Positions 1 through 15,168 of a DNA stretch of 64,000 nt are shown in pieces. Position 1 is the first letter of the stretch. Each line of letters starts with the position of its first letter. This stretch comes from Halorubrum vacuolatum. GTDB taxonomy: Archaea > Halobacteriota > Halobacteria > Halobacteriales > Haloferacaceae. The stretch is taken from positions 1-64,000 of the forward strand of contig NZ_FZNQ01000013.1 of assembly GCF_900188065.1 (NCBI RefSeq), given 5' to 3'. The notes beneath the pieces were generated by a model. That model had not been told where the DNA came from and did not search any database. It worked only from the letters and a program-made list of their open reading frames with translations. The position numbers and the translations under genes were made by a program.

Positions 1-490
1 GGTTCAGGGATCTCAAACACATCCAGAACCAGACACTTTCTCGTGGTTAATTCGACGATTCAATCTGACCGATTACGTCATTCGTGAAGTACCGACTATA
101 CCAATCAAATTAGAGTCTCTTTCTAGTGACTTAAATAATCTACGAGATTCATTACTTTTATCTTTTATATCGACACGTGATTGTACGATTACAGAAGAGG
201 GATTTAAAAGCGAACCACGGTCATCTGAATCTGATAAATGGTTGTTATTGAATAGTCGGTTTACACAATTTGCGCTTTTATTCACCTTATCCCGGATTAC
301 TAGTAATAAATAGAGTACAAATAGTAGTTTTTAGGAACCCAAACTGCATATCTTAACTACTCTTTCTGGCACCTGAGTAACAACTTAGTGCAGTTATTCC
401 TCTTCCAAAGCTACTCTATGACATGACCTTTTTATATCGAAATCGGACATATTAACGGGAAACAGGACTATCTCTACGAGATAGGCGCCC
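1..490. other. AT-rich gene-poor left end of the island
   Basis: No convincing gene lies here. The sequence is much richer in A+T than the chromosome to the right of 15170. A 70-codon open frame on the minus strand (73-285, GTG start) has no recognisable domain and is not called. The stretch ends in a short perfect hairpin (468-484) just before the first long repeat. The left boundary of the island is outside the window. Confidence 0.5.
468..484. repeat. Perfect short palindrome beside repeat copy 1
   Basis: CTATCTC, a three-base loop TAC, then GAGATAG form a perfect 7-bp stem. It sits 6 bp before the conserved left end of repeat copy 1. A comparable 7-bp hairpin (9723-9740) lies about 40 bp before copy 2. 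Such hairpins can be recognition sites for IS200/IS605-type single-strand transposases, but no such gene is present here, so the role is unknown. Confidence 0.5.
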
Positions 491-780
491 TGTATCTTGC
501 ACGCCAGCGTTTTCATATCTGAATTATGTCACACCACGTGATGAGCGATTCGCGCCCGAGATCGGTCACGAGTATAGACCGACGAGTGTTGTAGATATGA
601 TCCGTATTCAGTAGCCGAACACGATCTCCACCGATAGCTGCTGCACGACCCAAGATCTTTTGATCTTCCACCGATCTTCGGGTCAGTATGATCTACTAGT
701 AGTTCTCGAATATGGAACGCCGTGCCTCGTGATGTCCCCCTCCGACTATGCAGTCACAGCATCGAAAAACTACCAGTAGT
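491..780. repeat. Island long direct repeat, copy 1
   Basis: This is the first of three direct copies of one noncoding sequence; the others are 9780-10070 and 14938-15168. All start with TGTATCTTGCACGCC and share ordered blocks: an inverted pair TCGGTC/GACCGA, a larger imperfect stem of GACCC-type arms closing on GATCTTCGGGTC, and the palindrome CTACTAGTAG. Copies 1 and 2 both run on to a shared ACTACCAGTAGT end. No reading frame is conserved among the copies. It may be a non-autonomous mobile element, a recombination site or a structured RNA. Confidence 0.8.
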
Positions 781-964
781 CCTTTGATATTGACCTAGGG
801 TTTCTTTCAGGATTGCTTTTGCCCAACTACCGTAACCGATCACGATGGTACACACAACAGCAGGACCACTTCGTCCAACTACACAGGAGTTCACGATCTC
901 AGGATGCTCAGATTTGCGCTGTACCGACTCGGGTAGAATGGATCTTTAGTGAACTCTCAGGCCG
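781..964. other. Intergenic spacer, nothing recognised
   Basis: This separates repeat copy 1 from the histone-fold gene, which reads toward it. The plus-strand frame from 813 runs into the opposite strand of the histone-fold gene and shows no domain, so it is not called. Confidence 0.4.
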
Positions 965-1132
965 TTACAAGTCTTGTGGCATGACAGTCTTGCGGTCATT
1001 CGCTTCAGCACGACGGGAGGCTTCCTCAATAAGTTCGGCTACTTCTTCATCCAGAGCATCGTAGAAATCTGCTGCAACCGGGTGGTCTTCTAGTGCATCC
1101 TGCACCCCGCTATTGACGATCAGGTCTGTCAT
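965..1132 (-). CDS. Small histone-fold (DUF1931-like) protein
   Basis: This 55-residue protein starts MTDLIVNSGV and ends in the ANDRKTVMPQDL block typical of archaeal histone-fold DUF1931 proteins. The helix FYDALDEEVAELIEEA matches the central helix of that fold. Haloarchaeal members are single-domain, about 55 residues, and are thought to bind DNA or pair with other proteins; their function is not well known. I chose the ATG at 1132, not the longer frame to 1213. The family begins here and a TATA-like ATATTTAC lies about 28 nt upstream, which fits a leaderless transcript. The gene lies downstream of the 286-residue gene on the same strand, 77 bp away, so it has its own promoter. Confidence 0.8.
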   Translation of the reverse strand: MTDLIVNSGVQDALEDHPVAADFYDALDEEVAELIEEASRRAEANDRKTVMPQDL

Positions 1133-1209
1133 ACAACCCGGTATTAACGGGTCAGAGTAGTAAATATTGGCAAATTGGCTCGTGAGTACCGGGACAATTC
1201 CGAGACTGG

Positions 1210-2070
1210 TCACAGAGTTAGGTCAGCAATCTCCCAGTCGCCCGAGAGCTCATTGTCCAGTCCCTCGTCACTCACGAGCTTCCGTATCCGTTGCTCAACA
1301 TCATGATCAAGCCTAAATTCGAAGTCGAACTCCTCCTGCCATTCCCAGTAGCGCGGGATCGTCGGCGAAAACTCACTCACCGCTCCGGCGGGTGCATCCA
1401 AAAGATGGCGGGTTTCGGATATTTCCCCTCGTGGATGGTCAAACCTTCTGCTGATGTCGCCGTCATTCACGATTCGTTCCAGTAAGTCGATAGCCGCGTG
1501 TTGGTCTGCGTAGAATGCATGTTCGAGCATTGGATTTACGACAAAGATATCCTTCGAGGCATGCTGGTGAATGGTGTCTGCAACAGCGTGATCAGGATGT
1601 CCGATCCCCCAACCGTACGGATGGACTCCCTCGTTGATGAAATCGTATCCGTCTCCCTCGACACGATCAAGAATTGAGCTGAAGAACTCCAACGATTTGG
1701 CTGGGATCTCCGTAACACCCTCTGTGAGTCGGGTCCGGATCAGACACCGACCCGTGACATTCTGAAGGACTGTCGTCACATGAGGGAATTCGTCTGATGT
1801 GTCCGGGTGATAGGCGTCAAGAAACTCTTCAAGCAACTCCCAATCTTCCGCTAGTACGGCATCATCAAGTACAGCGATGAGTCGTTCCCGATACGCACGG
1901 GTAATCCCCCGATAGCGGTCGGAGTCGCCTTGTTCATCTGCCGACAGTAACTTCGCCTCATACGTTGCTACTGCCTGCATGAGTGCCGCCACATCCCCAT
2001 CGTCAGCAGTTGCTAACTGCTGTTCAAGCGCCTCTATTTCGATTGGATCTGATCGTCTATCTGGCACCAT
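1210..2070 (-). CDS. Hypothetical protein, 286 aa
   Basis: I do not recognise this acidic, soluble protein. It has no signal peptide or membrane segment. The first half is predicted helical (residues about 10-100). The middle carries an aromatic, His-rich stretch (HPYGWGIGHPDHAV, about 150-163) that could be structural or metal binding. A Trp/Glu/Phe-rich segment near 245 precedes the C terminus. It is transcribed away from the helicase-nuclease operon with only 61 bp between the divergent starts (2070 and 2132), so the two units may share a control region. Its position on the island suggests an accessory role, which is inference only. Confidence 0.6.
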   Translation of the reverse strand: MVPDRRSDPIEIEALEQQLATADDGDVAALMQAVATYEAKLLSADEQGDSDRYRGITRAYRERLIAVLDDAVLAEDWELLEEFLDAYHPDTSDEFPHVTTVLQNVTGRCLIRTRLTEGVTEIPAKSLEFFSSILDRVEGDGYDFINEGVHPYGWGIGHPDHAVADTIHQHASKDIFVVNPMLEHAFYADQHAAIDLLERIVNDGDISRRFDHPRGEISETRHLLDAPAGAVSEFSPTIPRYWEWQEEFDFEFRLDHDVEQRIRKLVSDEGLDNELSGDWEIADLTL

Positions 2071-2131
2071 TGGTTCTCTCTACAGAAACCCTAGTCGTAA
2101 TGCTTGTGTCTCAAAACCGTAATAGTAGCAT

Positions 2132-2491
2132 ATGACCGCGACGTATGCGCTCAGTGTTGCCATCGAATCACACGACTACAGGGGCGAGTTCTATCTTATG
2201 GGCGATAAATACGATACAGGTGAAGATGTCCTAAAATACGTTGCAACTGACCATATCTTAGCACTAAAGCAACGCCCACACGTTGCCGAGTACCTTTTAG
2301 AGACACTCCGAGATGGTGAGAACGTGAGCAAGGCAGAGTACGACCAAGCTACCCCGGATGTCTCCTGTGGGCTCCACTTCGATGTTAACCACCAACAGTT
2401 CGGATTCTGGGTTGGCGACCGTAGAGTCGAGATCGGGAGGCGACCAACAAAGAGCGAATTGCGCTCAATCGCTGACGACCTTTCGGTGTAG
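2132..2491 (+). CDS. Hypothetical protein, 119 aa, first gene of helicase-nuclease operon
   Basis: This small soluble protein has no domain I recognise. It ends about 60 bp before the XPB-like helicase start, on the same strand, so the two are probably cotranscribed. Alternating charged and aromatic stretches (residues about 80-100, with FGFWVGDRRVEIG) look like beta strands. It could be an accessory subunit or specificity factor for the helicase-nuclease pair, but no motif proves this. Confidence 0.6.
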   Translation: MTATYALSVAIESHDYRGEFYLMGDKYDTGEDVLKYVATDHILALKQRPHVAEYLLETLRDGENVSKAEYDQATPDVSCGLHFDVNHQQFGFWVGDRRVEIGRRPTKSELRSIADDLSV

Positions 2492-2551
2492 TCCCTTCCT
2501 CGTTCTCCACTCCAGCAACGACAAGTATGCGACCTGCATAAAGAGAGTTGA

Positions 2552-3961
2552 ATGCGTCTCTCGTTTGATGACGGGACACTCCTTGTTGAAGACGCTCCTG
2601 AGTCTGTGCCGTATGCTGAGTGGGACGACCGTGTCGATGAGTACCGAGCACAGGCACACCATTACCGTGACATTCGAAAGTGGGTGAGCGGATCTGATGG
2701 GCAAGCCAGTCTTGAACAGCCAATGGGAACTGTGGCTGAATTGGAAGACGAGGCTCGTGCGTACTCGAAGTTCCATCTCACGCCTTCTGTCGCTATCGAA
2801 CCTCGTGATTACCAGCAGGAGGCACTCTCAGCGTGGCAGGATAACAACCGTCAGGGCAGTGTGATCCTCCCCACAGGAAGCGGAAAGACGTTTCTCGCCG
2901 TCCAAGCAATTGCTGACGCCGGTGTCAGCACGCTTGTTGTCGTTCCGACTATCGACCTGATGAACCAGTGGCACGCCACTCTCACAAACGCTTTCGGGAA
3001 TCAACTCCCTGATGGAATCGGCGTCTTGGGCGGTGGAAGCCACAATGTGACCAATATCACGGTGACGACCTACGACTCTGCGTACCGGTATATCAACGAG
3101 TACGGCGACCGGTTCGGGCTTCTCGTGGTGGACGAAGTACACCACCTTCCGGCACCGACCTACCAACAGATCCCTGAGATGACGATTGCCCCGTATCGAC
3201 TTGGACTCACGGCTACCTACGAGCGTGCTGACGGGAAACATGAAGAGCTAGCGGAACTGTTGGGCACAGTTGTGTATCGAGAAGGAGTCGACGAACTTGC
3301 AGGAGAGTATCTGAGCGAGTACGAGACGCTCCATCTCAGCGTGGAACTCACTGATGAGGAACGGAAGCAGTATACTGAGGAATACCAGATTTACCGCGAC
3401 TACGTCGACAGTCATGATTTTGACCTCTGGAAAGAGAGCGGCTATCAGGAATTTCTCAAACGCACGTCATACGATCCGCAGGGACGACGCGCCCTCATTG
3501 CGAAGCAACGAGCCGAGAAAATCGCTCGGACCGCCGAGAAGAAACTCGATACGCTGGATAATTTGCTGAAGAGACACCACGACGACCGTACAATCATCTT
3601 TACAGCGAACAACGAGTTTGCATACGAGATCTCTCAAGAGTTTGTTGTTCCCTGTATCACGCATCAGACCCAGACTGAGGAGCGAACAGAGATTCTCGAA
3701 CGATTTCGAACAGGAAAGTACTCGATGCTTGCTACCTCGCAGGTGCTGGATGAGGGAATCGACGTCCCGTCTGCAAACGTGGGTATCATCCTCTCTGGAA
3801 GTGCATCGAAACGACAGTACGCACAACGGCTGGGACGGATTCTACGTCCAACAGATGACCGCCAGCCAGCCCGACTCTACGAAATCATCACGGAAGACAC
3901 GATGGAGACTTACGTCTCTGAACGGCGTCGGCAAGGGGTGAGTGCCAATGCTGACAGCTGA
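2552..3961 (+). CDS. XPB/Rad25-type superfamily 2 DNA helicase
   Basis: This 469-residue SF2 helicase has a Q-motif-like RDYQQEAL (about 85), Walker A PTGSGKT (about 107-113), Walker B DEVHH (194-198), motif III LTATYERADG (the XPB RED-type position), and motif VI QRLGRILR (about 425). XPB helicases open DNA in nucleotide excision repair and transcription. Archaeal members act with the nuclease Bax1, and the next gene overlaps this one and is Bax1-like. The N-terminal about 80 residues are shorter than eukaryotic damage-recognition regions. The gene lies on an AT-richer island between two repeat copies, so it may be an accessory rather than the housekeeping copy. A defence role is possible but unproven. 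Confidence 0.9.
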   Translation: MRLSFDDGTLLVEDAPESVPYAEWDDRVDEYRAQAHHYRDIRKWVSGSDGQASLEQPMGTVAELEDEARAYSKFHLTPSVAIEPRDYQQEALSAWQDNNRQGSVILPTGSGKTFLAVQAIADAGVSTLVVVPTIDLMNQWHATLTNAFGNQLPDGIGVLGGGSHNVTNITVTTYDSAYRYINEYGDRFGLLVVDEVHHLPAPTYQQIPEMTIAPYRLGLTATYERADGKHEELAELLGTVVYREGVDELAGEYLSEYETLHLSVELTDEERKQYTEEYQIYRDYVDSHDFDLWKESGYQEFLKRTSYDPQGRRALIAKQRAEKIARTAEKKLDTLDNLLKRHHDDRTIIFTANNEFAYEISQEFVVPCITHQTQTEERTEILERFRTGKYSMLATSQVLDEGIDVPSANVGIILSGSASKRQYAQRLGRILRPTDDRQPARLYEIITEDTMETYVSERRRQGVSANADS

Positions 3962-5297
3962 CCTCGCCCGCTCACGTACGTACGACGGAACTATCTCTCC
4001 GCTGTTCATCGACGCGGACGACCAGCAGTACCGAGAGACCGCAACAGAACTCATCCAGATCTTCGAGGAGCATCTCGGACAATCCAAGGGTGGGCTGGAG
4101 GAGACGATAGACCAGCTCACTATCGCAGACACGGACTACAAGATCGTACAAGGACTGGCGAAACTCCTGAAAGATGAGTGCGAATTCAAAACCGTTGCAC
4201 CAGTAGATCCGCAGGCGATCCGGCAGCAGCTTTTTGAGAAAGCGAACGATTCGTACCCGATTGCACGTCAGCCCACGCTCGGTGAGGACACACAAAAGTT
4301 GGAGGTGTACAGTGCTGTTGCTGACCAGTTCGGGATCTCACTCGAAGACTGCTACCGAGGCATGTATGCCGATTTAGAGGAGAACAAGCAACTTGTACGA
4401 TTTGGACACCGTACGTCCGATGAGTATGATGAGGCTGACGACGGGACGACCACGACACGGTTGACTGGAGATAGTGAGGAATCGTATGCTGAGGATACGA
4501 TAACGGTCGATTGGCTTCTCACACGCTACAATCTCGCTCTGGCACAAGCAGTACTGTACGATGCGACAGAGATGCGGATACGAGTCTGGGACTCGTTTGC
4601 GACGGTGTTCAGCTACGTGAAACTGTTTGGGCTGATGCACCGCATCTATCCAATCGACGCCAACGGCAACCGCGTTTCCAGTACTGACGTTGCTGACGGG
4701 TACGAGGCCATTCTGGATGGAGCAGCATCTCTTTTTTCGAAATCGAGGAAATACGGAATACGGATGTCAAACTTCCTTCCAGCTCTCCCGTTGTGCGACC
4801 GCTGGGAGATGGAAGCTGATATTCTTGATGACGATGGAGGAGCAACGAGTCAAACGCTCTCGTTTGAGCTTGACCACACGGACGAACTCTCCTCGCACTA
4901 CTCGGCTCAGAGCGATTTTGACTCCGATGTGGAACGCACACTTGCTCAAAAGTGGGAACGTGCCAACACTGACTGGCAACTCGTCCGCGAGGATGACGTA
5001 CTGGACCTAGGGGCAGAGGTAATGCTCCCGGACTTCGCTATCGAACACCCTGATGGACGCCGAGTCGTATTCGAGATCATCGGGTTCTGGACGCCAGAGT
5101 ATCTGAATGGAAAGCTGGCGAAGATACGGAATGCTGACCGGGACAACCTCATTGTCGCCGTCTCTGAACGGCTGGACTGTTCATCTGAAGATTTCGATGG
5201 ACTGGATGACCGTGTCTTGTGGTTCAAATCGGGTATCCACGTCTATGACGTGATTGAATTAGCGAAGGAGTATGCTGTCAAGTTCTCACCACGGTAA
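3948..5297 (+). CDS. Bax1-like (DUF790) nuclease, partner of XPB
   Basis: This 449-residue protein matches archaeal Bax1 (binds archaeal XPB, DUF790). It begins MLTADLARSR, as in that family. It ends in a PD-(D/E)xK-like nuclease core with LPDFAIEHPDGRR, then VVFEIIGFWTPEYL (about 360-385). Bax1 is a structure-specific endonuclease that cuts DNA opened by XPB. The start overlaps the helicase stop by 14 nt, which implies translational coupling. A GTG two codons earlier (3942) is the alternative start. A charged Asp/Thr linker (about 150-185) separates the N-terminal region from a helical middle. The role of the pair on this island is not shown by the sequence. Confidence 0.87.
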   Translation: MLTADLARSRTYDGTISPLFIDADDQQYRETATELIQIFEEHLGQSKGGLEETIDQLTIADTDYKIVQGLAKLLKDECEFKTVAPVDPQAIRQQLFEKANDSYPIARQPTLGEDTQKLEVYSAVADQFGISLEDCYRGMYADLEENKQLVRFGHRTSDEYDEADDGTTTTRLTGDSEESYAEDTITVDWLLTRYNLALAQAVLYDATEMRIRVWDSFATVFSYVKLFGLMHRIYPIDANGNRVSSTDVADGYEAILDGAASLFSKSRKYGIRMSNFLPALPLCDRWEMEADILDDDGGATSQTLSFELDHTDELSSHYSAQSDFDSDVERTLAQKWERANTDWQLVREDDVLDLGAEVMLPDFAIEHPDGRRVVFEIIGFWTPEYLNGKLAKIRNADRDNLIVAVSERLDCSSEDFDGLDDRVLWFKSGIHVYDVIELAKEYAVKFSPR

Positions 5298-5414
5298 TAG
5301 CGTTGATCTCGCCTATTACTTCCGCTGGACTCTCATTGGTTATACAACAGCGGGGTGCGTAGATCACCGTGGAACTTGGAATCCTGTCACACGCTCCAAG
5401 TTCCTCATCACATC

Positions 5415-5564
5415 ATGTCCAATGCAGTGTCGGAACTCGGTACGTGTCCATATTGTGGGTCGGCTGTTCCAGCCGGAGCGATACTTATCGAATACGAAGT
5501 GGAAAGTGAAACGCGTCTCTTTGCGGAGTGCTACGAATGTGAAGAGCCGGTCCAGCCACAGTAG
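5415..5564 (+). CDS. Small zinc-ribbon protein, 49 aa
   Basis: The protein has CPYCGSAVPAG near residue 11 and CYECEEPV near residue 40, two Cys pairs that should bind one zinc. Short zinc-ribbon proteins of this kind are common in haloarchaea and resemble the DUF7837 family; their function is unknown. I chose the ATG at 5415, since the upstream part of the frame looks noncoding. It follows the Bax1-like gene by 117 bp and may be cotranscribed with it. Confidence 0.7.
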   Translation: MSNAVSELGTCPYCGSAVPAGAILIEYEVESETRLFAECYECEEPVQPQ

Positions 5565-5634
5565 CTGTAACACGCACAAACTACTGTTCATGTCATACTG
5601 TCGAGTCACTATCACCTAGCTGCTACGGACACCA

Positions 5635-6126
5635 TCACGCTACGTATAGAACACGGCATAGATCGAATACAGTCCGCCGCAGGCGAACTGCATTGGTGGT
5701 TAGAAGAATCTCCGCATGTGGAACGTTTCTCTTATTGAGCAGCTCGTAGCCTCTCGGGACCACCGTGTGCTCTGTTATGAAGGCAACTACGAATCCAATA
5801 AAACCGCCGACAATGAGAGCCTGAAACGGTGGAACGTACGAAGGAACGCCGAACGCCAGCGCAAGCCCGAGCGTGATCGGAGCAGCTATCATAACGACTC
5901 CAAACGCGACTAATGCCAGACGTTCTCTGTGCTGTTCGGAGTAGTGGTCCCGCAGTAGCCAGACAACCGGGCCAGCAAGAATTGCTATAATGACTCCAAT
6001 GCCAGTAATTGAAATCCATGGAATGGCACCCCTCTCCATGAGTTGCAGAACGCTCAAAAGAGCAAATATCCCAACAAATACGAACACAAGTAACTGCCGC
6101 ATGAAGTGAGAAAGCGACTTCATCAC
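5635..6126 (-). CDS. Four-helix membrane protein of unknown function
   Basis: This 163-residue protein has four hydrophobic segments (about 10-28, 36-56, 68-92 and 98-118) and a charged C-terminal tail. Its ATG overlaps the stop of the upstream 330-residue gene as ATGA, so the two are translationally coupled. I recognise no family. Being the last gene of a three-gene minus-strand operon, it could anchor the partner proteins to the membrane. A small membrane protein coupled to soluble unknowns is also a common layout for toxin or effector genes, but nothing here proves that. Confidence 0.65.
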   Translation of the reverse strand: MMKSLSHFMRQLLVFVFVGIFALLSVLQLMERGAIPWISITGIGVIIAILAGPVVWLLRDHYSEQHRERLALVAFGVVMIAAPITLGLALAFGVPSYVPPFQALIVGGFIGFVVAFITEHTVVPRGYELLNKRNVPHAEILLTTNAVRLRRTVFDLCRVLYVA

Positions 6127-7115
6127 GGCCCTCCTCGGGGATGTGTATGAAATTGTGAGCCGGATTTGAATTCGGTTAGCTCCGCGATCCGATTTTCAAG
6201 CTCTTTGATTTCTCCACGGAGCTCTTCCGCCTCGCTCCCCTCTGTTGCAGCCAACTGGTCTTTCAGCCCCTGCAGCCGTGTTTCTTTGTGTTCCTCGTCA
6301 ACCTCGGCCTTCCGGACATACTCCGACTCTTCGATATCGTACACATCACTGTCAGATAGGGGTGTGACCTCAATTGCATCGTCCACTTTGCTCCGGTCGA
6401 CGCCCAGCACGCGCTCACGCTCAATCCCGGCTTCTTCCAGCGTCTCCAGTACCTCTTCATCGGGTTTGAGCGACCGGTTTCTCCGTGTCGTCCGTTGAAC
6501 GGACCCAAACGGTCCAGAGACGGGTTGATCGTGATGGAGTCGGTTGAGAAGCACATCGCTCACATCCTGCCGGAGGTCGTTGGCGTTCCGTTGGACATCC
6601 GAGAGTAGCGTGTAGAGATTCACCAGCACGTCCGTATCCATCTCTTCGAGAGTGGTTACCTCGTGTCGCTCCAGTACATCAACCAGCAAGAGTGCATCCG
6701 CATATACGTCCAAGTCTGGCTCAGTCCGTTCTCTTTCCTCACTCTCTGGCTCGTCCCCAGTGTCGAGAATCTGGGTAGTGGTCGGTCCGTCCTTTTCGAC
6801 GATCACGCCGGCATCCTCATCGATCTCAAAGCGTGGATGGAGACTCCACACCGCTGGGTAGGGGTCCGCATTGGGTGGGAGTCGGTCTAACTCAAATCCC
6901 GCCTCGGAGTCAGTGATCCGGCGATATAGTGTCTCGAATTGGTCCTGCTGGAGCGGCTGTGAGTCACCGCTGTGTATAAATTGGATCACGACGCGGTGCT
7001 CTTGGACGTCCGTGATCCAAAACCGGTCGTGGGACAGCGGCGTCCGGAGAGTAGCTCCCTCTGGCAGCTCATCCAACCGCTCGATGAGATTATGCCAGTT
7101 AACTCTGAACGACAT
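6123..7115 (-). CDS. Hypothetical protein with C-terminal coiled coil, 330 aa
   Basis: This acidic protein has an N-terminal mixed domain (1-110) and an acidic linker (about 115-135). A helical segment follows (about 135-190), then a conserved-looking block with GPFGSVQRTTRR (about 200). A coiled coil near the end (about 270-318) is rich in E, L and K. Similar unnamed proteins occur in haloarchaeal proviruses and islands; that is from memory and not checked. It is the middle gene of a three-gene minus-strand operon, 99 bp after the 184-residue gene and coupled by ATGA to the membrane protein. Confidence 0.65.
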   Translation of the reverse strand: MSFRVNWHNLIERLDELPEGATLRTPLSHDRFWITDVQEHRVVIQFIHSGDSQPLQQDQFETLYRRITDSEAGFELDRLPPNADPYPAVWSLHPRFEIDEDAGVIVEKDGPTTTQILDTGDEPESEERERTEPDLDVYADALLLVDVLERHEVTTLEEMDTDVLVNLYTLLSDVQRNANDLRQDVSDVLLNRLHHDQPVSGPFGSVQRTTRRNRSLKPDEEVLETLEEAGIERERVLGVDRSKVDDAIEVTPLSDSDVYDIEESEYVRKAEVDEEHKETRLQGLKDQLAATEGSEAEELRGEIKELENRIAELTEFKSGSQFHTHPRGGP

Positions 7116-7214
7116 ACCTGCATGGAGAGGGTCAGGTGCTAAATGTCTGCGGGCGATTCAGGCTGAATTCTCAGAAGATATTCGGTCAGCGCATCCAGAG
7201 TGCCGTCGAAAAAG

Positions 7215-7769
7215 CTACTCCGAGTCGTCCTCAGCGATGTCTGCTCGGCGGCGGGCAGCCTGTTCGAGAACGGCAAGCATCTCGGTGCGTTGCTCAGCAG
7301 GGACGTTACGCCACTGCTCGCGATAGCTCTCGATAAACTGGTCGAACTCCTCAGCAAACGCCGTTTCAGGATCGTCGGACGCCTGAATTCGAGCAACCGC
7401 GTCCTGCCAGAGCTCTCGTGTTGCCCCGCGCTCAAATACGTAATCGATCAAGAGGGTTGCATCGAACGAGAACTCGCGGGTGAGCTCTGTCACCTCCCAC
7501 TCGCCACTGGTGAGGTGGTAGCGATAGCGGGTCCGAATGTGCCAGCGCGCAGGTGTTGGCCCTCCAACCATTGAGGCAGCTAATAGTGGAGAGGGGTGCC
7601 GTTCAAGACGGAAACTGAAGTCCTCTTTATTGAACTGCCACCATGCGCCACGCTCCCGAATTTTCCTGACTGTCAATCCATCTGGCAGCAAGATCTCGCT
7701 CGTGGTCAACAGTCGGAGTGCATCTTCCCGATCCTCAATGCGCACCTGCGATGGATCGGACTTGTTCAT
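7215..7769 (-). CDS. Hypothetical protein, 184 aa
   Basis: This soluble protein has a beta-rich first half (including GAWWQFNKEDFSFRLERHP near 41-59) and a helical, charged second half (about 115-175). I do not recognise the family. It is the probable first gene of the operon that runs to 5635. The 240 bp upstream, before the lipoprotein gene on the other strand, hold no other gene and must contain both promoters. Confidence 0.6.
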   Translation of the reverse strand: MNKSDPSQVRIEDREDALRLLTTSEILLPDGLTVRKIRERGAWWQFNKEDFSFRLERHPSPLLAASMVGGPTPARWHIRTRYRYHLTSGEWEVTELTREFSFDATLLIDYVFERGATRELWQDAVARIQASDDPETAFAEEFDQFIESYREQWRNVPAEQRTEMLAVLEQAARRRADIAEDDSE

Positions 7770-8009
7770 ATCTTGAGATAGTCACACACTCACAAAGCTG
7801 TTATCCAGACTCTCAGTCTCCCCTGATCGGAATGATTAGAGAGTCTCTGACAGAAAGCAGAGAGTTCATTCGGCAGATGCTGAATACAGAGGTTCAATGC
7901 AGCAAAAGCTTCGTCTTAATCTACGAGAGCGGTGATCGATCAGTACGGAAAACCCGTAACCCACCTATGGAATAAAATAGTTAGACCTGCTAACATTATC
8001 CACTTAAGC

Positions 8010-9383
8010 ATGAACAGGGAGAAAGTAAATAAAAGACAATTTTTGAAAGGCCTTGGAGGACTAGGAGCAACAGCAGGCCTAGCAGGATGTGGGGACACAG
8101 GAAACGGATCACCTTCAGATGGCAGTTCTGATACCAGTGATACCGGAGATGATATTGAAACTGATTCATCTCCAGAAGATGATGGTAAAGATCGAGATGA
8201 TGATGATGGTGAAGTGGAAGATGAGGATCAATTTGAGGTAGTTGATGCTGAAGTGTTGGGCGCGTATGATTCTGAATCCGATTCCTTAAATTTGAATATT
8301 GATTATGAAGGTGATTTAGATGAAGGTTATACTCCTGATGTCAGGTTGAATGGTGAGGCCTTAACAAATCTAGATGCCTTGGAAGCTGATGGCTCTTTCA
8401 AAGTTGAAGACATTGACGGAATGCTGGAAGGCGGAGAAGGCAATCTAATAATAGTTGATGGCAACCGTGTCAACTTCAGAGTATATGACTCCTGGAACGA
8501 CATAGAACAAGCAGAATACGAATTTTGGAGATATCGAGCAGATAGAGCTCCTAGAGGAGCAGAACAAGCTGCCAGAAGAATATTTGATCCCGACGCTGAC
8601 TTCTCAGATAAAAATACTTTCATGGAAGAACATCTAAATATTATAAATGAAATAGTGAAAGACCCTGAATACGGTGACGGATTCTCAGGTGCAATCGATT
8701 GGGTTTATCCAATATTAAACGTTATTCACATAGAAAATGATAATAAAATCAGGTTGAGCCCAGGAACTATATCACATGGCTTTACAAAAATCAAGTCAGG
8801 TCATGAAACAGATGATCAAGGCTATGGTTTTCCATTAATTACCGCTGACTCTAACTACCCTGCAGTGGGCCTAACCGAAGATAATCCACTAGATGAAAGA
8901 GGACAATCAAACGTCTACGGAGATCTAGGAAAAAATGTAGTAGGCGAAGATTTTGAAGACTTAGATACTAGTGGAAGACGAGCAGGCAGTATGATGTGGA
9001 ATAATATTATAAGAGTTCCTAGTGCGGGTAATGATAACGTTGTAAGCTTTGATCCAAGTGTGATGACTGAGTATCTTGATCTTTATTGGGATGGCGATGG
9101 ACATATATTGTTTGGTAAGGTAAGACATGCGCTTGGTACTTTAACAAAGGCCTTAGCAAACGGTTTTGTAGAAGAAGATTTCAGCGACCATTACAATGGT
9201 GATGATGAAGAAGAACTAGCTAACTTGATGATTACCTCAGGTGTTGAAGACCTTCCTAGTCCTGAAAACTTTGATAACCATGGAGAATATGCAGAGGAAC
9301 TGCTTCATGGAGGACACGTTGAGGCCTATGCTGAGGCCGCCTTCTGGAAAAAGCTTTTGGATTCTGAACACTATTATGGATGA
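8010..9383 (+). CDS. AT-rich Tat-exported lipoprotein of unknown function
   Basis: The protein is 457 residues from the ATG at 8010. I chose this start because it gives a Tat signal, NKRQFLKGLGGLG, followed by the lipobox LAGC with Cys27. The mature N terminus is a long Asp/Ser/Gly spacer (about 30-80), as is usual for haloarchaeal lipoproteins on the outer face of the membrane. The rest shows no domain I know. Codon use is striking: many AGA, TTA, ATA and AAT codons in a genome that avoids them. This suggests recent acquisition from a low-GC source. The next reading frame downstream, on the other strand, is a fragment with the same composition. Confidence 0.75.
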   Translation: MNREKVNKRQFLKGLGGLGATAGLAGCGDTGNGSPSDGSSDTSDTGDDIETDSSPEDDGKDRDDDDGEVEDEDQFEVVDAEVLGAYDSESDSLNLNIDYEGDLDEGYTPDVRLNGEALTNLDALEADGSFKVEDIDGMLEGGEGNLIIVDGNRVNFRVYDSWNDIEQAEYEFWRYRADRAPRGAEQAARRIFDPDADFSDKNTFMEEHLNIINEIVKDPEYGDGFSGAIDWVYPILNVIHIENDNKIRLSPGTISHGFTKIKSGHETDDQGYGFPLITADSNYPAVGLTEDNPLDERGQSNVYGDLGKNVVGEDFEDLDTSGRRAGSMMWNNIIRVPSAGNDNVVSFDPSVMTEYLDLYWDGDGHILFGKVRHALGTLTKALANGFVEEDFSDHYNGDDEEELANLMITSGVEDLPSPENFDNHGEYAEELLHGGHVEAYAEAAFWKKLLDSEHYYG

Positions 9384-9396
9384 ATTCTTATTTACT

Positions 9397-9621
9397 TCAC
9401 TGGAATGAGTCTTCTGACAAGTCGAAGTTTTCGTTCATTATTTCTTTTCTTGAGTTGTCCTTGTGTATTTCGAATACTTGATCGTTCTCTCCACCTCTAA
9501 CTAAGTCGCTTCTATCTTGTACTTCGTAAGCCCACTGACATGCATAACCTGAGTAACCACCGCTTGTATCAACAGTATCAGAAACACTCCATAACTGATC
9601 GAAAAATGTCTGTACCTTACA
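9397..9621 (-). pseudogene. C-terminal fragment of an AT-rich gene
   Basis: On the minus strand a 74-codon frame with no start is open from just after a TAG (9622-9624) to a TGA at 9397-9399. It has the same codon use as the lipoprotein gene (AGA, TTA, AGC). The product includes FFDQLWSVSDTVDT and ends NENFDLSEDSFQ. Lack of a start, matching composition and clean reading suggest the tail of a gene cut on its upstream side, convergent with the lipoprotein gene. The missing part should have lain where repeat copy 2 now stands. The family is unknown. Confidence 0.5.
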
Positions 9622-9722
9622 CTATGTTGAAAGACGGTATGCAAAGCAAACCTCTGCATGTTGCACCGGTCTTCTGATGGATTTCATATAAGTCGCCACT
9701 CCTCACGGTACGTGTACACCCT

Positions 9723-9740
9723 GTAGTGACCGATCACTAC
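9723..9740. repeat. Short palindrome upstream of repeat copy 2
   Basis: GTAGTGA, loop CCGA, TCACTAC form a perfect 7-bp stem, about 40 bp before the left end of repeat copy 2. It is comparable in size to the hairpin before copy 1 (468-484) but different in sequence. Confidence 0.45.
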
Positions 9741-9779
9741 TCTTTGGGATCTGCTTCAGTCCGTGCTGCATTCGCGCGC

Positions 9780-10070
9780 TGTATCTTGCACGCCCGCGGT
9801 TTTATGTGTGAATTATGTCACTCCAAGCGATTAGCGACTCGCGCCCGAAATCGGTCACGAGTACAGACCGACGCGGGCTGTAGATATGATCCGTATTCAG
9901 TAGCCGAACACGATCTCCACACATAAGCTGCTGCACGACCCGAGATCTTTCCGTCTTCCACCGATCTTCGGGCCAGTACGATCTACTAGTAGTTCTCGAA
10001 TATGGAACGCCGTGCCTCATGTTGTCCCCCTCCGACTATGCGGTCACAACACGGCAAAACTACCAGTAGT
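9780..10070. repeat. Island long direct repeat, copy 2
   Basis: This is the full-length copy, colinear with copy 1 from TGTATCTTGCACGCC to ACTACCAGTAGT with scattered substitutions and single-base indels. It lies between the AT-rich lipoprotein module and the downstream end of the STAND-like NTPase gene. A 12-bp sequence at its left end (CTGTATCTTGCA, 9779-9790) recurs in perfect inverted orientation at 10190-10201. The 423 bp between could therefore be a small element with terminal inverted repeats. No coding frame is conserved. Confidence 0.8.
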
Positions 10071-10189
10071 CTCTTAGTGGTCGGCTCAGGGCGTGAATAC
10101 AGCACTCATCGTTGGCTCCTTGTAAGCAATTAAGAGGCGAGAGCGCTCAACGGAACTGACGGTTTGTCGAGTAGCCGAGAAGAATATGC

Positions 10190-10201
10190 TGCAAGATACA
10201 G
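10190..10201. repeat. Inverted partner of the repeat left end
   Basis: TGCAAGATACAG is the exact reverse complement of CTGTATCTTGCA at 9779-9790. It lies in the spacer between copy 2 and the NTPase gene. Flanking bases match only loosely and I see no clear target-site duplication. I found no matching inverted partner near copies 1 or 3. Confidence 0.4.
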
Positions 10202-10259
10202 AGCGTGAGTTCAGCACGCACTTCGATTAGAGGTGTCTCAGATGTGCACGGTCGAACGC

Positions 10260-13200
10260 TTACTCAGTCTGTACCGAAACTGCCTCGCGCCAAGCTGTCG
10301 CAGTCGGGATATCGAAGCCGCATTTCGACGATTTGAGTTCGTCAGCGATCGTCGCGACGACCTCTGTATGGAGCTCCGGATCTATCTCGGTCAACTGGTC
10401 GATAGACTCTACGACCAAGTCGAAGGGTGGCTCAGGCTCGATGTCAACGGGCGTTCGTTCGAGAACTGCGGCAGTCACGGCCGCTAGTGCGTCAACACGG
10501 GAATCCCCGTCGAGCAACGAGTGGCCGTCTCCAACTTCGTCGATAGTTGCTTCCACTAACGTGACTGCCTGCTCTGGGTCGGCGTGGTCGAGCCCTCCAG
10601 CCCGGCGCACACAATCGACGTATGTATTGTCGGGGTCGGTGGTCCGGTCAGCGAGGTTGGCGAGATGGGCAAACAGAGTATCGAGTTCTTCGTGGCCGTC
10701 GGCGGCGGCGCTCATTGCAAGACCATGAGCGATCGTCCGTTCGACGAAGACATCCCGCGCATTCGTAGATTTTAGTGAGGGACCTAATAGGCCAACCGGC
10801 GGTTGATTACCGTCAAGCAGTTCAGCGGCGCGAGCCGTAACCGCAACGAACTCATCCGCGTTGCTCACGGCAAGTTTCCCGACGAGAGTAAAGAAGTCCT
10901 GAACATCGTCGTCGACGAGCGGCACACCGCTCTCAACGAATCTGTGATGGGCTCTTCCAATCCCGACGGCGACAACTTCGATCCGATCGGCTTGCGACTC
11001 GGAGTGTGGATCCGCTTTTTCGATCTTGTGGATGAGATCAGCAAGGATATCGACAACGTTATCCAGCGGATTGGCATGGGAAATCAAAATATCGTACAGG
11101 ATGAGGAATCCATCGCGGTTGAGAGTCCTACTCGCCCGATCGAGGAGTGTCTGTGTCCATGGGTCCAGCAAAAGCGATCCAGAGTCGGGGATTACTTGCA
11201 GGATCGACAAACCGACATACGCTGCTCGGAAACTATCTGAGCTCATTCCGTGTCGGTCGTCGGTGGCTGCGGTGGCGGCGCGGTCGTCGAGTTCGTCGAG
11301 CCACGGTTCGACCTCCCCGGGAGCGTACTGATCGGCCAACCTCTTGATAGCCGTCGAGTAGACGTTTGCGAGGAACTGGCCGGGCGGTTCGCCGTGTCGG
11401 TCGTCAGCGAGGACAGCTGCGGTGGCGGCGCGGTCGTCGAGTTCGTCGAGCCACGGTTCGACCTCCCCGGGAGCGTGCTTATCGGCCAAGTTTGAGATGG
11501 CCATCGAGTAGACGTTTGCGAGGAACTGGCCGGCCGGAAGGCCGTGTCGGTCGTCAGCGAGGACAGCTGCGGTGGCGGCGCGGTCGTCGAGTTCGTCGAG
11601 CCACGGTTCGACCTCCCCGGGAGCGTACTGATCGGTCAACCTCTTGATAGCCATCGAGTAGACGTTTGCGAGGAACTGGCCGGCCGGAAGGCCGTGTCGG
11701 TCGTCAGCGAGGACAGCTGCGGTGGCGGCGCGGTCGTCGAGTTCGTCGAGCCACGGTTCGACCTCCCCGGGAGCGTACTGATCGGTCAAGTTTGAGATGG
11801 CCATCGAGTAGACGTTTTCGAGGAACTGGCCGGCCGGAAGGCCGTGTCGGTCGTCAGCGAGGACAGCTGCGGTGGCGGCGCGGTCGTCGAGTTCGTCGAG
11901 CCACGGTTCGACCTCCCCGGGAGCGTGCTTATCGGTCAAGTTTGAGATGGCCATCGAGTAGACGTTTTCGAGGAACTGGCCGACATCCCATCCGAGTTCT
12001 TGCTCTGTTGCCACCTCGACGTACTCCTGAACGACTTCGTCTGCCTCTGTTAGACGGGTTGGGTTGCTGGATACTCCCAGTAACCCACCGAACCAGTTCT
12101 GTATGATAACACTCTGCTCGACGGGACTTGCCCCAGATATCTGCAGCAACTGAGTTCGATGGTCGCGCATCACCGAGGGGTCGATTGGGACTCTCGTGAG
12201 GGGCAGTGCGAGTCGTGAGAATGGTTCCGGGTCTGTATCAGCCAACGCCTGCTCGAAGGTCGCCTCACTTGCGTCGACCACCTTTGATATGAGCTCGTCG
12301 TCACTGCGCTCCTGTCCAACGCTGTGGGCCATCAGTAAATTCAGTGCTAGCCCCATGTAGGACTCGGCCGCTACGTCGTGCTCTGAATCAGCAAGTGTAG
12401 CCAGAAACCCTTGGAGTTTATTTTCCGTAATCGCCCTCCGACGGAATACGACCTCACCGTAGATATCCGGCGAAATACTCCACGTCTTATCTTCGTCCAG
12501 AGGTCTGAAAGAATCCCCGAGGAGAACATCCATTTCTTCGCCTTCGAGGTACCCCGACAATTGCTCCAGCACGTCGCGTAAGGTACCCAAATCTTCGCCA
12601 GTCAACGTCGATAGTTGGCCAAGCGACAGCGATCGGGTAAACGCAAGTGTCTGGAACACCCGTGGCCCCAGCGACTCTCCGTGAACCATCGCCGATGGAG
12701 GATTAACTACGTTATCGATGTCCTCCCAGATCAAGTCGTCGACTGTCTCGAACGCCGATAGTGGTTCGTCCTCGACCGCAACGTACCGGGCCGCGAGTTT
12801 GGCTATCTCCGCGTTCCCACGGGCAAACTCGACAACTTCCGGCACTGCCCCTTCACGCCGTTCAGGAGACAGCTCATATACATCCTTCAGAACCCAATCG
12901 ACGAGGTCGCCCAAGGTTCCGTCTTCACTATCATCGTCCGAATGTTCCGGGAGTTTCGAAAACGGGATCCGTTCACGGTTCTTCCATGCCTCACTTCCGA
13001 CCCGGAACTCTCGACTCTCGTACTGCTGTTTGAGCGCGGTGGAGAACTCTTCACGTACCTCGACGATCACTGCGTGACAAGGGCCCTCCTGAACCAATTC
13101 GAGGATCGTGGCTAAATCGTCGTTATCGAAATGTGCGGTCCCGACTCGATAGCTCGTCACTAACACTGATGGCTCGTCGGTTCGGTCTACTGCCCACTCG

Positions 13201-14774
13201 ATATACTCTGGAGAGTCCCAATCGTCCGGCAAGCGCACGTCATAGCCCCGGTCGGCGAGTTCTCGTGCCGCATTCAGCGCTCCCGCCGTCTTTCCTGTCC
13301 CGTATGCTCCTTCGAGTGTCACCAAGCCACCGTCGGCGACCGCTTTCACAATTTGATCGACCTCGTCCCCGTAGTACGGTATATTGGTCATCTCTGGAAG
13401 CGTCAGATCCTCATCTCCGGCCGATCGATCGCCGCCAGTGAGTAGTGTCCGTTCGTTATCTCGGACTGTCTCTTCGAACGCCGGCAGTCCTCGTGTTGCT
13501 CCTGCCAGCCTGTTGGACATTATCGATTCGAACTCCGAGGCTCGCCGGGTGTGTTCAGCGAGGTGCTCGACTGCGGCATCGATGTCGTCGAACTCCGTCT
13601 CGAACTCTTCGGTCCACGCATCGACGGCTGCGTCAAACTCTGTACGGAGTTCCGGAACTTCCTCGCAGGTCGTTCTGATACGTCGCAGGTTCCCCTTCCT
13701 GCCGAGCCACGTTAGGTTGTCTACCGTCCCCGGCGGGAGGTCGAACGTGTCCTCAACTTGCTCCCGAGCCGGCGGTGTGAGGGTGTTGTCGACGACCTGA
13801 TCTAACAGTGCATCTACCGGAAGCGCATCAGTACCCTCTCCGCTTTCCTCCCAGTCACGAAGTGCCAGCCAGAGTCCGAGTCCGAGAAGTGGTCCCAACG
13901 GAGTAGCCCAGATCGTGGGCGATCCGAGACTTCCTCTAAGCGATGACCGTGCTTCGTCGATTATGGTTTCCGTGTTCGACAGGACCTCGCCTAGATTGGT
14001 CTCCCGAAGTGTATCGAGATCGGCGGTCGGAAGGTGAGACCTCACAAACCCGACCACTTCTGAAAGACCGGCACTTGCACCGAAGTCGGTGAGTGCGTCC
14101 CGGACAACACTGCCGGTCAGCACACCGTCGGACTCGGCTTCAGATGTTCCTAGTCTGTCGGAGACGAATCCAACCATCGGCGGCAGGAGCGTGGGCTCGT
14201 ACGGGCCGAGGGCCTCGGAGAGCGTATGGTGTTCGAACTCGTACCCTTCGTATCGGAGTAAGTCGAGTGACCCTTCGACCACTTCCGCAACGAGATCGTC
14301 ACCAATCACCACACATCGCTGAACCGCTCGGGCGACGTCTTCGTCGCTCTCGGGATCGTATTGAAGTTTGAACACCTGATCGACCGGTGTGAAATCTCCA
14401 GCTTCGATCGGTATCTCGCTCTCGTCTTGCCGGACCATCCAATCGAGTGTTCGCGGACGGGTCGCCAAACAAACACCCGCGTCCCTGTCGAACAGTTGCG
14501 TCAGTCGCTCGCGAACAGATACGTCTCCGAACTGCGTAGCCACGATCGACTCGTAGAGATGATCGACGATCAGGAGTGCGTCGTCGGCGTCCTCGATTGC
14601 CTCGTCGCTCAAGTCCTCGACGTACTTGACGCCGCTTTCCTTTCCGAGACTCTTCAATCGTTCTGTGGTTCCGACGTAGGGGGCACCGAGGATGAGAGTT
14701 GCCTCACCGTGTAGTTGCTCTACCTGAAGCCGATCAGGTCGGCGTGATGTGACGGTGAGATCTCCTTCCGTCAT
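10260..14774 (-). CDS. Giant STAND-like NTPase with near-identical tandem repeats
   Basis: This 1504-residue protein starts MTEGDLTVTS. The N-terminal region (about 1-280) has a P-loop-like LILGAPYVGTT but no recognised enzyme domain. A hydrophobic stretch follows at about 283-306 (TPLGPLLGLGLWLAL), a possible membrane segment. The NTPase module begins near 465 with Walker A GAYGTGKT (489-496), a Walker B-like HAVIVEVREE, and a GNAEIAKL motif like the late STAND signature. The C-terminal half is helical, with five 48-50-residue repeats (about 932-1179) nearly identical even in DNA, then degenerate repeats. This order (effector, STAND NTPase, repeat sensor) is that of Avs and other NLR-like immune receptors. 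Function and ligand are inferred. Confidence 0.82.
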   Translation of the reverse strand: MTEGDLTVTSRRPDRLQVEQLHGEATLILGAPYVGTTERLKSLGKESGVKYVEDLSDEAIEDADDALLIVDHLYESIVATQFGDVSVRERLTQLFDRDAGVCLATRPRTLDWMVRQDESEIPIEAGDFTPVDQVFKLQYDPESDEDVARAVQRCVVIGDDLVAEVVEGSLDLLRYEGYEFEHHTLSEALGPYEPTLLPPMVGFVSDRLGTSEAESDGVLTGSVVRDALTDFGASAGLSEVVGFVRSHLPTADLDTLRETNLGEVLSNTETIIDEARSSLRGSLGSPTIWATPLGPLLGLGLWLALRDWEESGEGTDALPVDALLDQVVDNTLTPPAREQVEDTFDLPPGTVDNLTWLGRKGNLRRIRTTCEEVPELRTEFDAAVDAWTEEFETEFDDIDAAVEHLAEHTRRASEFESIMSNRLAGATRGLPAFEETVRDNERTLLTGGDRSAGDEDLTLPEMTNIPYYGDEVDQIVKAVADGGLVTLEGAYGTGKTAGALNAARELADRGYDVRLPDDWDSPEYIEWAVDRTDEPSVLVTSYRVGTAHFDNDDLATILELVQEGPCHAVIVEVREEFSTALKQQYESREFRVGSEAWKNRERIPFSKLPEHSDDDSEDGTLGDLVDWVLKDVYELSPERREGAVPEVVEFARGNAEIAKLAARYVAVEDEPLSAFETVDDLIWEDIDNVVNPPSAMVHGESLGPRVFQTLAFTRSLSLGQLSTLTGEDLGTLRDVLEQLSGYLEGEEMDVLLGDSFRPLDEDKTWSISPDIYGEVVFRRRAITENKLQGFLATLADSEHDVAAESYMGLALNLLMAHSVGQERSDDELISKVVDASEATFEQALADTDPEPFSRLALPLTRVPIDPSVMRDHRTQLLQISGASPVEQSVIIQNWFGGLLGVSSNPTRLTEADEVVQEYVEVATEQELGWDVGQFLENVYSMAISNLTDKHAPGEVEPWLDELDDRAATAAVLADDRHGLPAGQFLENVYSMAISNLTDQYAPGEVEPWLDELDDRAATAAVLADDRHGLPAGQFLANVYSMAIKRLTDQYAPGEVEPWLDELDDRAATAAVLADDRHGLPAGQFLANVYSMAISNLADKHAPGEVEPWLDELDDRAATAAVLADDRHGEPPGQFLANVYSTAIKRLADQYAPGEVEPWLDELDDRAATAATDDRHGMSSDSFRAAYVGLSILQVIPDSGSLLLDPWTQTLLDRASRTLNRDGFLILYDILISHANPLDNVVDILADLIHKIEKADPHSESQADRIEVVAVGIGRAHHRFVESGVPLVDDDVQDFFTLVGKLAVSNADEFVAVTARAAELLDGNQPPVGLLGPSLKSTNARDVFVERTIAHGLAMSAAADGHEELDTLFAHLANLADRTTDPDNTYVDCVRRAGGLDHADPEQAVTLVEATIDEVGDGHSLLDGDSRVDALAAVTAAVLERTPVDIEPEPPFDLVVESIDQLTEIDPELHTEVVATIADELKSSKCGFDIPTATAWREAVSVQTE
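11238..11981 (-). repeat. Five 150-bp coding tandem repeats
   Basis: Units on the minus strand are 11981-11832, 11831-11682, 11681-11532, 11531-11382 and 11381-11238. Each encodes about 50 residues starting GQFL and containing APGEVEPWLDELDDRAAT. The last unit lacks two residues. Differences cluster at a few codons: residue 5 (E or A), residues 13-14 (SN or KR), residue 16 (T or A), residues 18-19 (KH or QY). The remaining bases are almost all identical between units. The variable codons occur in shuffled combinations, which suggests recombination or gene conversion. Confidence 0.92.
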
Positions 14775-14937
14775 TTCGTCGTTTCTTGCCAGAATGTTAA
14801 CTCAAGGCAATTTAAGTCTATCTTACAGTCGTCCCGTCTCCCGGGCGGAACTACATCAGGAATATGGGTGACCGACTCAGGGAAGATATTTGTCCTAATT
14901 AGTGTGTTGAGGTATCGCCTGTGGTGATTATGCGCGC
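14775..14937. promoter_or_regulatory. Upstream region of the NTPase gene
   Basis: This 163-bp spacer lies between the NTPase start (minus strand) and repeat copy 3. It must hold the NTPase promoter. I see AT-rich stretches near 14800-14825 but no single convincing TATA box. No gene is visible. Confidence 0.35.
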
Positions 14938-15168
14938 TGTATCTTGCACGCCCGCATGTTCATATCTGAATTATGTCACTCCAAGCGATTAGCGACTCGC
15001 ACCCGAAATCGGTCACGAGTACAGACCGACGAATGTTGTAGGTATGATCCGTATTCAGTAGCCGAACACGATCTCCACCGATAGCTGCTGCACGACCCGA
15101 AATCTCTCCGTCTTCCACCGATCTTCGGGTCAGTATGATCTACTAGTAGTTATTGAATATGGAACGCC
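14938..15168. repeat. Island long direct repeat, copy 3, at right border
   Basis: This copy matches copies 1 and 2 from TGTATCTTGCACGCC through the CTACTAGTAG palindrome to GGAACGCC. It then stops matching, about 55 bp short of the end shared by copies 1 and 2, and runs straight into the reading frame of a pilus ATPase. The last shared bases, GAACGCC (15162-15168), could be junction microhomology with an Asn-Ala codon pair of the ATPase gene. This marks the right border of the island. Confidence 0.82.

What the first reader, a model, noticed from the sequence alone, without database searches (positions are those of the whole stretch)
8010..9621. Foreign AT-rich lipoprotein gene and a truncated AT-rich neighbour
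The lipoprotein at 8010-9383 uses AGA, TTA, ATA and AAT codons freely, unlike all other genes here. Downstream, a start-less 74-codon frame of the same composition (9397-9621, minus) looks like the tail of a second foreign gene, broken on the side facing repeat copy 2. The two convergent genes probably arrived together, perhaps as a surface-protein cassette, and one was then damaged at the repeat.
Basis: partly seen in the sequence, partly recalled or inferred. Interest (0 to 1): 0.5.

Follow-up and report, generated by a model that had tools for sequence, protein, structure and literature searches.

The report
Lipoprotein cassette from archaeal conjugative element
A small AT-rich pair of genes, one for a lipid-anchored surface protein, sits in the GC-rich DNA of a salt-loving archaeon and most likely is a displaced copy of cargo from a family of self-transferring DNA elements, recognisable by a six-letter word (AGGCCT) repeated far more often than chance in that DNA.

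Summary
In detail: window 8010-9383 encodes a 457-aa Tat lipoprotein with foreign codon bias, and 9397-9621 (minus) is an open frame without a start codon. The two genes form one foreign cassette (about 7955-9651): a diverged copy of the pair, in the same convergent order, lies at C21:1-891 of this genome. The small gene was not broken at the repeat: its C21 copy also lacks ATG/GTG, has the same in-frame stop upstream and no repeat beside it, and dN/dS is near 0.4. The likely source is an integrative conjugative element (ICE) at tRNA-Thr, pieced from five contigs by synteny with a complete relative in another genome. In these ICEs a spot beside an Orc1/Cdc6 gene holds varying cargo (empty in 5 of 11 relatives). 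AGGCCT is 11-fold over-represented in the own ICE and 20-fold in the cassette (5 sites, 0.25 expected), but depleted in host DNA. No convincing relative of the mature lipoprotein or the small protein was found outside this genome, within the limits of the searches. Function is inference. Side finds: a diversity-generating retroelement on a sister ICE; an AGGCCT signature resembling cyanobacterial HIP1.

The parts
7955..8009 (+). Conserved 5' flank of the lipoprotein gene (promoter-like, AATAAAATAG), shared with C49:10204-10258
   Evidence: window 7955-8107 matches C49 10204-10365 at 88%; alignment; promoter role inferred
8010..9383 (+). Tat-type lipoprotein, 457 aa, AT-rich; leader shared with C49, C-terminal part homologous to C21:1-612
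   Evidence: Smith-Waterman Z 7.4 against C21 over 300 shuffles
9397..9621 (-). Convergent 74-codon open frame without a canonical start codon; homologue at C21:643-861 (-)
9622..9651 (-). Conserved block upstream of the frame, with an in-frame stop (TAG here, TAA in C21)
   Evidence: 84% identity over window 9532-9651 / C21 775-891
8048..9327 (.). Five AGGCCT palindromes (8048, 8075, 8356, 9148, 9322), signature of the source ICE; none in the rest of window 1-15000
   Evidence: 5 against 0.25 expected, Poisson 6e-6; 0 against 3.8 expected in the other 13.3 kb
9758..10222 (.). Repeat copy 2 with 33-nt inverted ends (MITE-like); starts about 107 bp beyond the end of the cassette homology and is not part of the cassette

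Best explanation
The feature is a two-gene cargo module of about 1.7 kb (window 7955-9651), an AT-rich Tat lipoprotein and a convergent small gene, displaced from or exchanged with an AGGCCT-rich family of haloarchaeal integrative conjugative elements. In the ICE of this genome the related module lies between a coiled-coil-like gene (end of C49) and an Orc1/Cdc6-like gene (start of C21), a spot that is empty or filled with other cargo in sister ICEs. Shown: homology of both genes to the ICE copies, the same convergent order, homology that ends between, not inside, the ICE backbone genes, the shared AGGCCT signature and codon style, and a complete sister ICE. Inferred: that C49 and C21 are joined (from synteny); that the protein is exported by Tat and lipid-anchored outside the cell; that it works as a surface factor of the element. 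Of named roles, exclusion of or recognition between mating partners is my first guess (0.15). How the module moved is not known; no terminal repeats were found.
For: Own-genome DNA matches at C49, C34 and C21. C49 and C34 both end in lipoprotein genes and share exactly 95 nt there. tRNA-Thr at C36:92739-92810 with 36 bp identical to C21:3165-3200, and an integrase-like gene behind it. A sister ICE at G135:C1 about 1251-1288 kb carries homologues from C36, C34, C49 and C21 in one order and of C26. Spot survey in 11 relatives. AGGCCT is the top hexamer of the own ICE (66 against 6.0 expected) and stands 5 against 0.25 in the cassette. Lipoprotein window-C21 Z 7.4; window or C21 against four other ICE lipoproteins Z 1.4 or less.
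Against: No contig shows the whole ICE lipoprotein: C49 stops after 57 codons and C21 starts inside the gene. The C-terminal parts are only about 26% identical over 128 residues, and plain single-sequence searches of the own genome did not recover C21. AlphaFold2 models were useless (mean pLDDT 36.5 and 39.1). Lipoproteins are not visibly enriched in ICE DNA. No empty target site for the cassette was found (which scored only 5 candidates a genome). A chimeric contig cannot be excluded without reads.
Confidence: 0.73

Rival explanations
1. The cassette is a dead relic: both genes are decaying leftovers of an earlier ICE and nothing is expressed.
For: The 74-codon frame has no canonical start; no AGGCCT, the ICE mark, in the other 13.3 kb of window 1-15000, so no ICE backbone around it is evident.
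Against: The 457-codon lipoprotein frame is intact, and its first 22 codons differ from C49 by one nonsynonymous and no synonymous change. The small frame shows dN/dS near 0.4 between the copies.
Confidence: 0.25
2. The lipoprotein is an entry or surface exclusion factor of the ICE, working like TrbK/Eex or TraT, and the chromosomal copy protects the cell from related ICEs.
For: Lipoprotein genes lie 1.1-1.6 kb from the membrane-protein gene next to virB4 in C34 and in L254. In bacteria trbK/eex genes sit next to trbL/virB6, and TrbK has a lipoprotein signal (PMC8923210, passages). Divergent mature domains would suit a specificity factor.
Against: The membrane protein is VirB6-like by position and membrane segments only; Pfam gave no family. 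The window gene's own relative lies beside Orc1/Cdc6. It is much larger than TrbK. No sequence link; model too poor for a fold link. No lipoprotein enrichment in these ICEs. Lowered from 0.2.
Confidence: 0.15
3. The lipoprotein is an ordinary passenger, for example a solute-binding, enzymatic or virus-blocking surface protein, unrelated to transfer.
For: Other cargo in the same spot is varied: KAP-type NTPases (L282, L292), AAA_15 ATPase with weak HATPase and OLD-TOPRIM signals (L275), transglutaminase-like (L276), a protein with a weak winged-helix signal (L281).
Against: No family match for the lipoprotein in Pfam, PHROGs or PADLOC at the limits used, beyond the Tat signal and one insignificant hit.
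Confidence: 0.5
4. The genes came from a low-GC haloarchaeon or nanohaloarchaeon directly, not through an ICE.
For: AT-rich codon use.
Against: Relatives are on an ICE in the same genome with the same AGGCCT signature; ICE relatives are in haloarchaea. Three Haloquadratum loci (GC 0.49-0.52) have AGGCCT at 0-0.2 times expectation.
Confidence: 0.07

Closest known systems
Cargo regions of integrative conjugative elements (ICEs) integrated at tRNA genes
   Same: The source element has a tRNA-Thr att site, tyrosine integrase, VirB4- and TraG-type ATPases, Orc1/Cdc6-like genes, type I restriction-modification genes, and variable cargo between conserved backbone genes
   Different: The window copy lies outside any recognisable ICE; the cargo is a lipoprotein without known relatives
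TrbK/Eex entry-exclusion lipoproteins (IncP, IncN plasmids)
   Same: Lipoprotein encoded by a conjugative element
   Different: No sequence similarity found; 457 aa against 69 and 151 aa for two TrbK proteins; Tat-type leader; its own ICE location is beside Orc1/Cdc6; function untested
HIP1, highly iterated palindrome of cyanobacteria (PMC4390886, outline and abstract seen)
   Same: A short GC-rich palindrome strongly over-represented
   Different: Hexamer AGGCCT, high in ICE DNA and depleted in the host DNA examined; matching methyltransferase not identified
Mycoplasma vsp/vpma variable lipoprotein genes (architecture recalled; search listing only)
   Same: Conserved 5' flank and leader joined to divergent mature domains
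   Different: Only three gene starts seen; no switching shown

Membership tests
Haloarchaeal tRNA-Thr ICE (source element) | Integration at a tRNA gene with direct repeat and integrase | tested here: met
   For the ICE: 36-bp identical ends, tRNA-Thr(ggt), integrase-like gene 91% identical to one in G135; only the C49 integrase was scanned in Pfam. The window cassette has neither
Haloarchaeal tRNA-Thr ICE (source element) | Conjugation ATPases VirB4 and TraG | tested here: met
   C34: TraG/TrwB families and AAA_10/DUF87 above cut-off, VirB-type CagE_TrbE_VirB below it; TraG homologues in 15 of 15 stretches that had been picked by VirB4
Haloarchaeal tRNA-Thr ICE (source element) | VirB6-type membrane channel protein | tested here: inconclusive
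   Gene next to virB4 conserved in 15 of 15 stretches, but no Pfam family
ICE cargo module | Same genes in the same order in the variable spot of an ICE | tested here: met
   C49 end and C21 start against G135 synteny; the join across the gap is inferred
Tat lipoprotein | Twin-arginine-type leader, hydrophobic stretch, lipobox with Cys | tested here: inconclusive
   KRQFLKGLGGLGATAGLAGC: KR rather than RR; TAT_signal 22.2 bits against a cut-off of 22.7; lipobox judged by eye; export not tested
TrbK/Eex exclusion proteins | Sequence or fold similarity | tested here: not met
   No family hit, no PDB sequence hit; fold not testable, model too poor
TrbK/Eex exclusion proteins | Reduces entry of a related element when present in the recipient | not testable with these tools
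   Needs mating assays
Highly iterated palindromes | Palindrome far above base-composition expectation | tested here: met
   AGGCCT is the top hexamer in three of four ICEs and second in G155
Highly iterated palindromes | Cognate DNA methyltransferase in the genome | tested here: inconclusive
   Of eight G135 ICE proteins scanned only a type I HsdM is a methylase; the rest of the ICEs and the hosts were not scanned

The most novel reading that the evidence does not exclude
A lineage of haloarchaeal ICEs carries its own highly iterated palindrome (AGGCCT), made and kept by an ICE- or donor-coded methylation/repair system or used as a transfer or recognition tag. It also carries mosaic surface lipoproteins, in which a conserved promoter-leader is joined to interchangeable mature domains at the lipobox, that set mating or exclusion specificity; the window holds a captured spare copy in the chromosome.
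Probability: 0.15. Interest if true: 0.75.

Novelty: new member of a known kind. Interest (0 to 1): 0.42.

Why it matters
It identifies the likely source of an apparently orphan foreign gene: mobile-element cargo can be recognised in a host chromosome by a six-letter signature where protein homology is almost silent. It also defines an ICE family in Halobacteria with a fixed spot for changing cargo, and raises a testable question: why AGGCCT is enriched in these elements although the host DNA examined depletes it.

Tried and rejected
Signal-peptide matches: the full-length lipoprotein hit 180 of 391 class genomes, own included; the listed matches lie almost wholly in the leader and linker. With the mature part, 9 of 390 other genomes had something at E 0.1 or less: best 8.4e-4 (35% over 79 aa in a 700-aa frame), eight more between 0.007 and 0.1. 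That search scored at most 4 candidates a genome and did not recover C21 either, so I repeated it with a profile of the window and C21 C-termini: it finds both own copies, and in 316 other genomes only 4 weak matches (best 0.0175).

(5.3-kb query, 5 candidates scored a genome) missed even the own C49 and C21 copies and cannot show absence; with the cassette alone finds the four own places and nothing in the 50 other genomes of the genus.

Ranked; positions looked at for six loci and ORFs for two, L139 and L148, which carry collagen-like QGLQG repeat proteins; no element protein matched those loci. Dead end.

Conserved RNA in the block upstream of the small frame: four folds, z -0.43 to 0.51. 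No sign.

Structure models were too poor; no fold search was run. Terminal repeats of the module: none of 8 nt shared between its ends.

'ICEs are enriched in lipoproteins': one rule gave 2 hits in 152 kb of host DNA and 9 in the ICE loci with their flanks; one of the nine is host DNA of C21, two (G240:38107, L253:17415) are probably not lipoproteins, and the rule does not report the open-ended starts in C49 and C34. Total length was not computed in that call; no enrichment claimed.

Two labels that I had given by eye did not stand the check: 'VirB6' of C34 and 'PLD-like' of L281 have no such Pfam family.

Literature: 'AGGCCT' with 'archaea' gave 21 papers, 10 listed, none on this topic by title; ICE searches gave 0, 5 and 16 papers, DGR with haloarchaea 8, HIP 10, exclusion 17, vsp 17. 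I saw these listings, the outline and abstract of PMC4390886, and passages of PMC8923210, PMC8144416, PMC13107129 and PMC8371274. The library holds open-licence papers only, so 'not in print' is not claimed.

Full report
What is there. The window is the first 64 kb of contig C43 (89.7 kb) of a 3.48-Mb haloarchaeal genome in 72 contigs ('haloarchaeal' from the relatives named and from composition). Most of its left 15 kb has lower GC (about 0.52-0.61) than most of the rest (about 0.60-0.71); the first kb and 8001-10000 drop to 0.41-0.44. The lipoprotein gene 8010-9383 and the start-less frame 9397-9621 are as described. By codon use the lipoprotein is an outlier even against its low-GC neighbours.

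Relatives in the same genome. DNA searches gave three further places: C49:10204-10365 to window 7955-8107 (88%), C34:10207-10278 to 8033-8107 (81%) and C21:775-891 to 9532-9651 (84%). C49 and C34 end inside lipoprotein genes and share exactly 95 nt at their ends, probably the assembler's k-mer overlap (inference; 95 identical nt are also shared between the window's contig start and ends of C67, C45 and C23). C21 begins inside a lipoprotein gene whose C-terminal 204 residues resemble the window protein (Smith-Waterman 86 against a shuffle mean of 38.7 and maximum of 73 in 300; Z 7.4). It is followed in convergent orientation by the homologue of the small frame.

The small frame is not a piece broken at the repeat. 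In C21 it has nearly the same length (73 against 74 codons), no ATG/GTG start (a TTG stands at codon 7 where the window has TTC) and the same in-frame stop upstream (TAA against TAG); 18 bp beyond the conserved block ends an AAA gene, not a repeat. Over the best-aligned part of the frame mismatches fall 6/1/9 on the three codon positions, 33 sites each, and dN/dS over 72 codons is 0.38/0.98 (Fisher p 0.003 on rounded counts). It was therefore a protein under selection for much of the divergence; its start is unexplained.

The source element. C36 has a tRNA-Thr gene (92739-92810), of which 36 bp recur at C21:3165-3200; an integrase-like gene follows. C34 carries VirB4- and TraG-like genes and next to them a membrane protein that is VirB6-like only by position. 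C49 carries a second integrase, an ATPase with weak FtsK/TrwB signals, a GmrSD-type gene and HsdS; C21 two Orc1/Cdc6-like genes. VirB4 of C34 matched 159 of 390 other class genomes at 1e-10; 24 of them form the strong group (30-47% identity, over 200 bits). Among these, G135 holds a complete element, about 1251-1288 kb, with homologues from C36 (integrase 91%), C34 (TraG 81%, VirB6-like 52%, VirB4 32%), C49 and C21 in one order. C26 (7.5 kb, AGGCCT 18 against 1.7 expected) matches the stretch between the C34 and C49 parts. The own ICE is thus at least 34.5 kb in five pieces. VirB4 does not follow the AGGCCT group (own VirB4 is closer to unmarked ICEs), whereas TraG does, so the elements are mosaic.

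The cargo spot. An Orc1/Cdc6-like pattern scan of the 84,980-species collection returned 26 loci. Ten of them, and G135, have both the coiled-coil-like gene and the first Orc gene; G240 and G155 have the coiled-coil-like gene but no match to that Orc gene in the fetched stretches. The space between is under 300 bp in 5 of 11 (L274, L279, L280, L287, G135) and holds cargo in 6 of 11: L275, L276, L277, L281, L282, L292. Among these six only L277 (Halonotius pteroides) has a lipoprotein there, by its leader; it shows no similarity to the window protein (Z 0.3) but is 45% identical to one near the VirB6-like gene in L254 (L254 is probably Halobellus clavatus by its equal contig length). tblastn of the window lipoprotein, the C21 part and the small protein found nothing in these loci (E 1e-3, 1e-2).

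The AGGCCT signature. Without cassette and C26, AGGCCT is the most over-represented hexamer of the own ICE contigs (66 against 6.0 expected), of G135 (89 against 8.5) and of G240 (103 against 14.4), and second in G155 (67 against 12.7); host stretches have 0.15-0.55 of expectation. The other 21 of the 24 VirB4 relatives have 0-2 times expectation in 4-5 kb each, so the mark belongs to a subset. The cassette has 5 sites against 0.25 expected, the other 13.3 kb of window 1-15000 none against 3.8. Genome-wide, 16 places have two AGGCCT within 60 nt; 11 lie in ICE contigs or the cassette and 5 elsewhere (my count; the tool's control, the pattern read backwards, a word natural to GC-rich DNA, gave 104). 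The correlation is shown; the cause is unknown.

Absence elsewhere. The C-terminal profile finds both own copies and nothing convincing in 316 other class genomes (best 0.0175). The small protein had none in 390 class genomes (best 0.0045), nor by peptide patterns in genome contigs or viral contigs. The whole lipoprotein had none in 72,556 plasmid or 50,697 phage records at E 1e-5, nor by patterns in viral contigs; these would miss relatives as distant as C21. The cassette DNA was not matched in 50 other genomes of the genus.

Mosaic build. The window and C49 genes differ by one substitution in the first 22 codons; then C49 has 9 nt more, and DNA similarity ends at window 8107, shortly after the lipobox. 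C49 and C34 have different leaders but are identical for 95 nt starting inside the lipobox. This suggests exchange at the lipobox; three gene starts are too few to claim a diversification system.

How it most likely works. Shown: origin and composition. From established knowledge: a Tat leader with lipobox means export and lipid anchoring at the outer face of the haloarchaeal membrane. Inferred: a surface factor of the ICE; exclusion or partner recognition is my first named guess at 0.15, an ordinary passenger role is more likely.

Noticed in passing
L267:4510-7828 (G135 ICE, between orcB and att): Diversity-generating retroelement: reverse transcriptase (YMDD, IGTLYSQ) and a protein with pilin-like leader (by eye) and FGE-sulfatase (C-lectin) domain; 118-nt template/variable repeat pair with 12 of 14 differences at template adenines. 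It would diversify a surface protein of a conjugative element.
   Followed up: partly
C36, C34, C26, C49, C21 of the own genome; G135, G240, G155: AGGCCT highly iterated palindrome in one group of ICEs, depleted in the host DNA examined.
   Followed up: partly
window 9758-10222, also 482-802 and 14929-15168: Repeat with 33-nt inverted ends at copy 2; further partial copies in C52, C69, C11 and C20: MITE-like.
   Followed up: partly
window 10260-14774 (-): 1504-aa protein with weak STAND/AAA similarity below cut-off and near-identical 50-residue repeats (150-nt period, 11248-11982).
   Followed up: no
window 2552-5297: XPB-like helicase followed by a DUF790 protein, an XPB-Bax1-like pair (name recalled); C24 matches 3377-5263 at 73%.
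   Followed up: no
window 6123-7115 (-): Gene matching phrog_35116 over nearly its whole length, with several copies in this genome and in the genus.
   Followed up: no
L288-L291, L293-L296, L298, L299: Ten archaeal contigs, seven titled Micrarchaeota, one each Aenigmatarchaeota, Woesearchaeota and unspecified, encode 30-37% relatives of the ICE Orc1/Cdc6-like protein.
   Followed up: no
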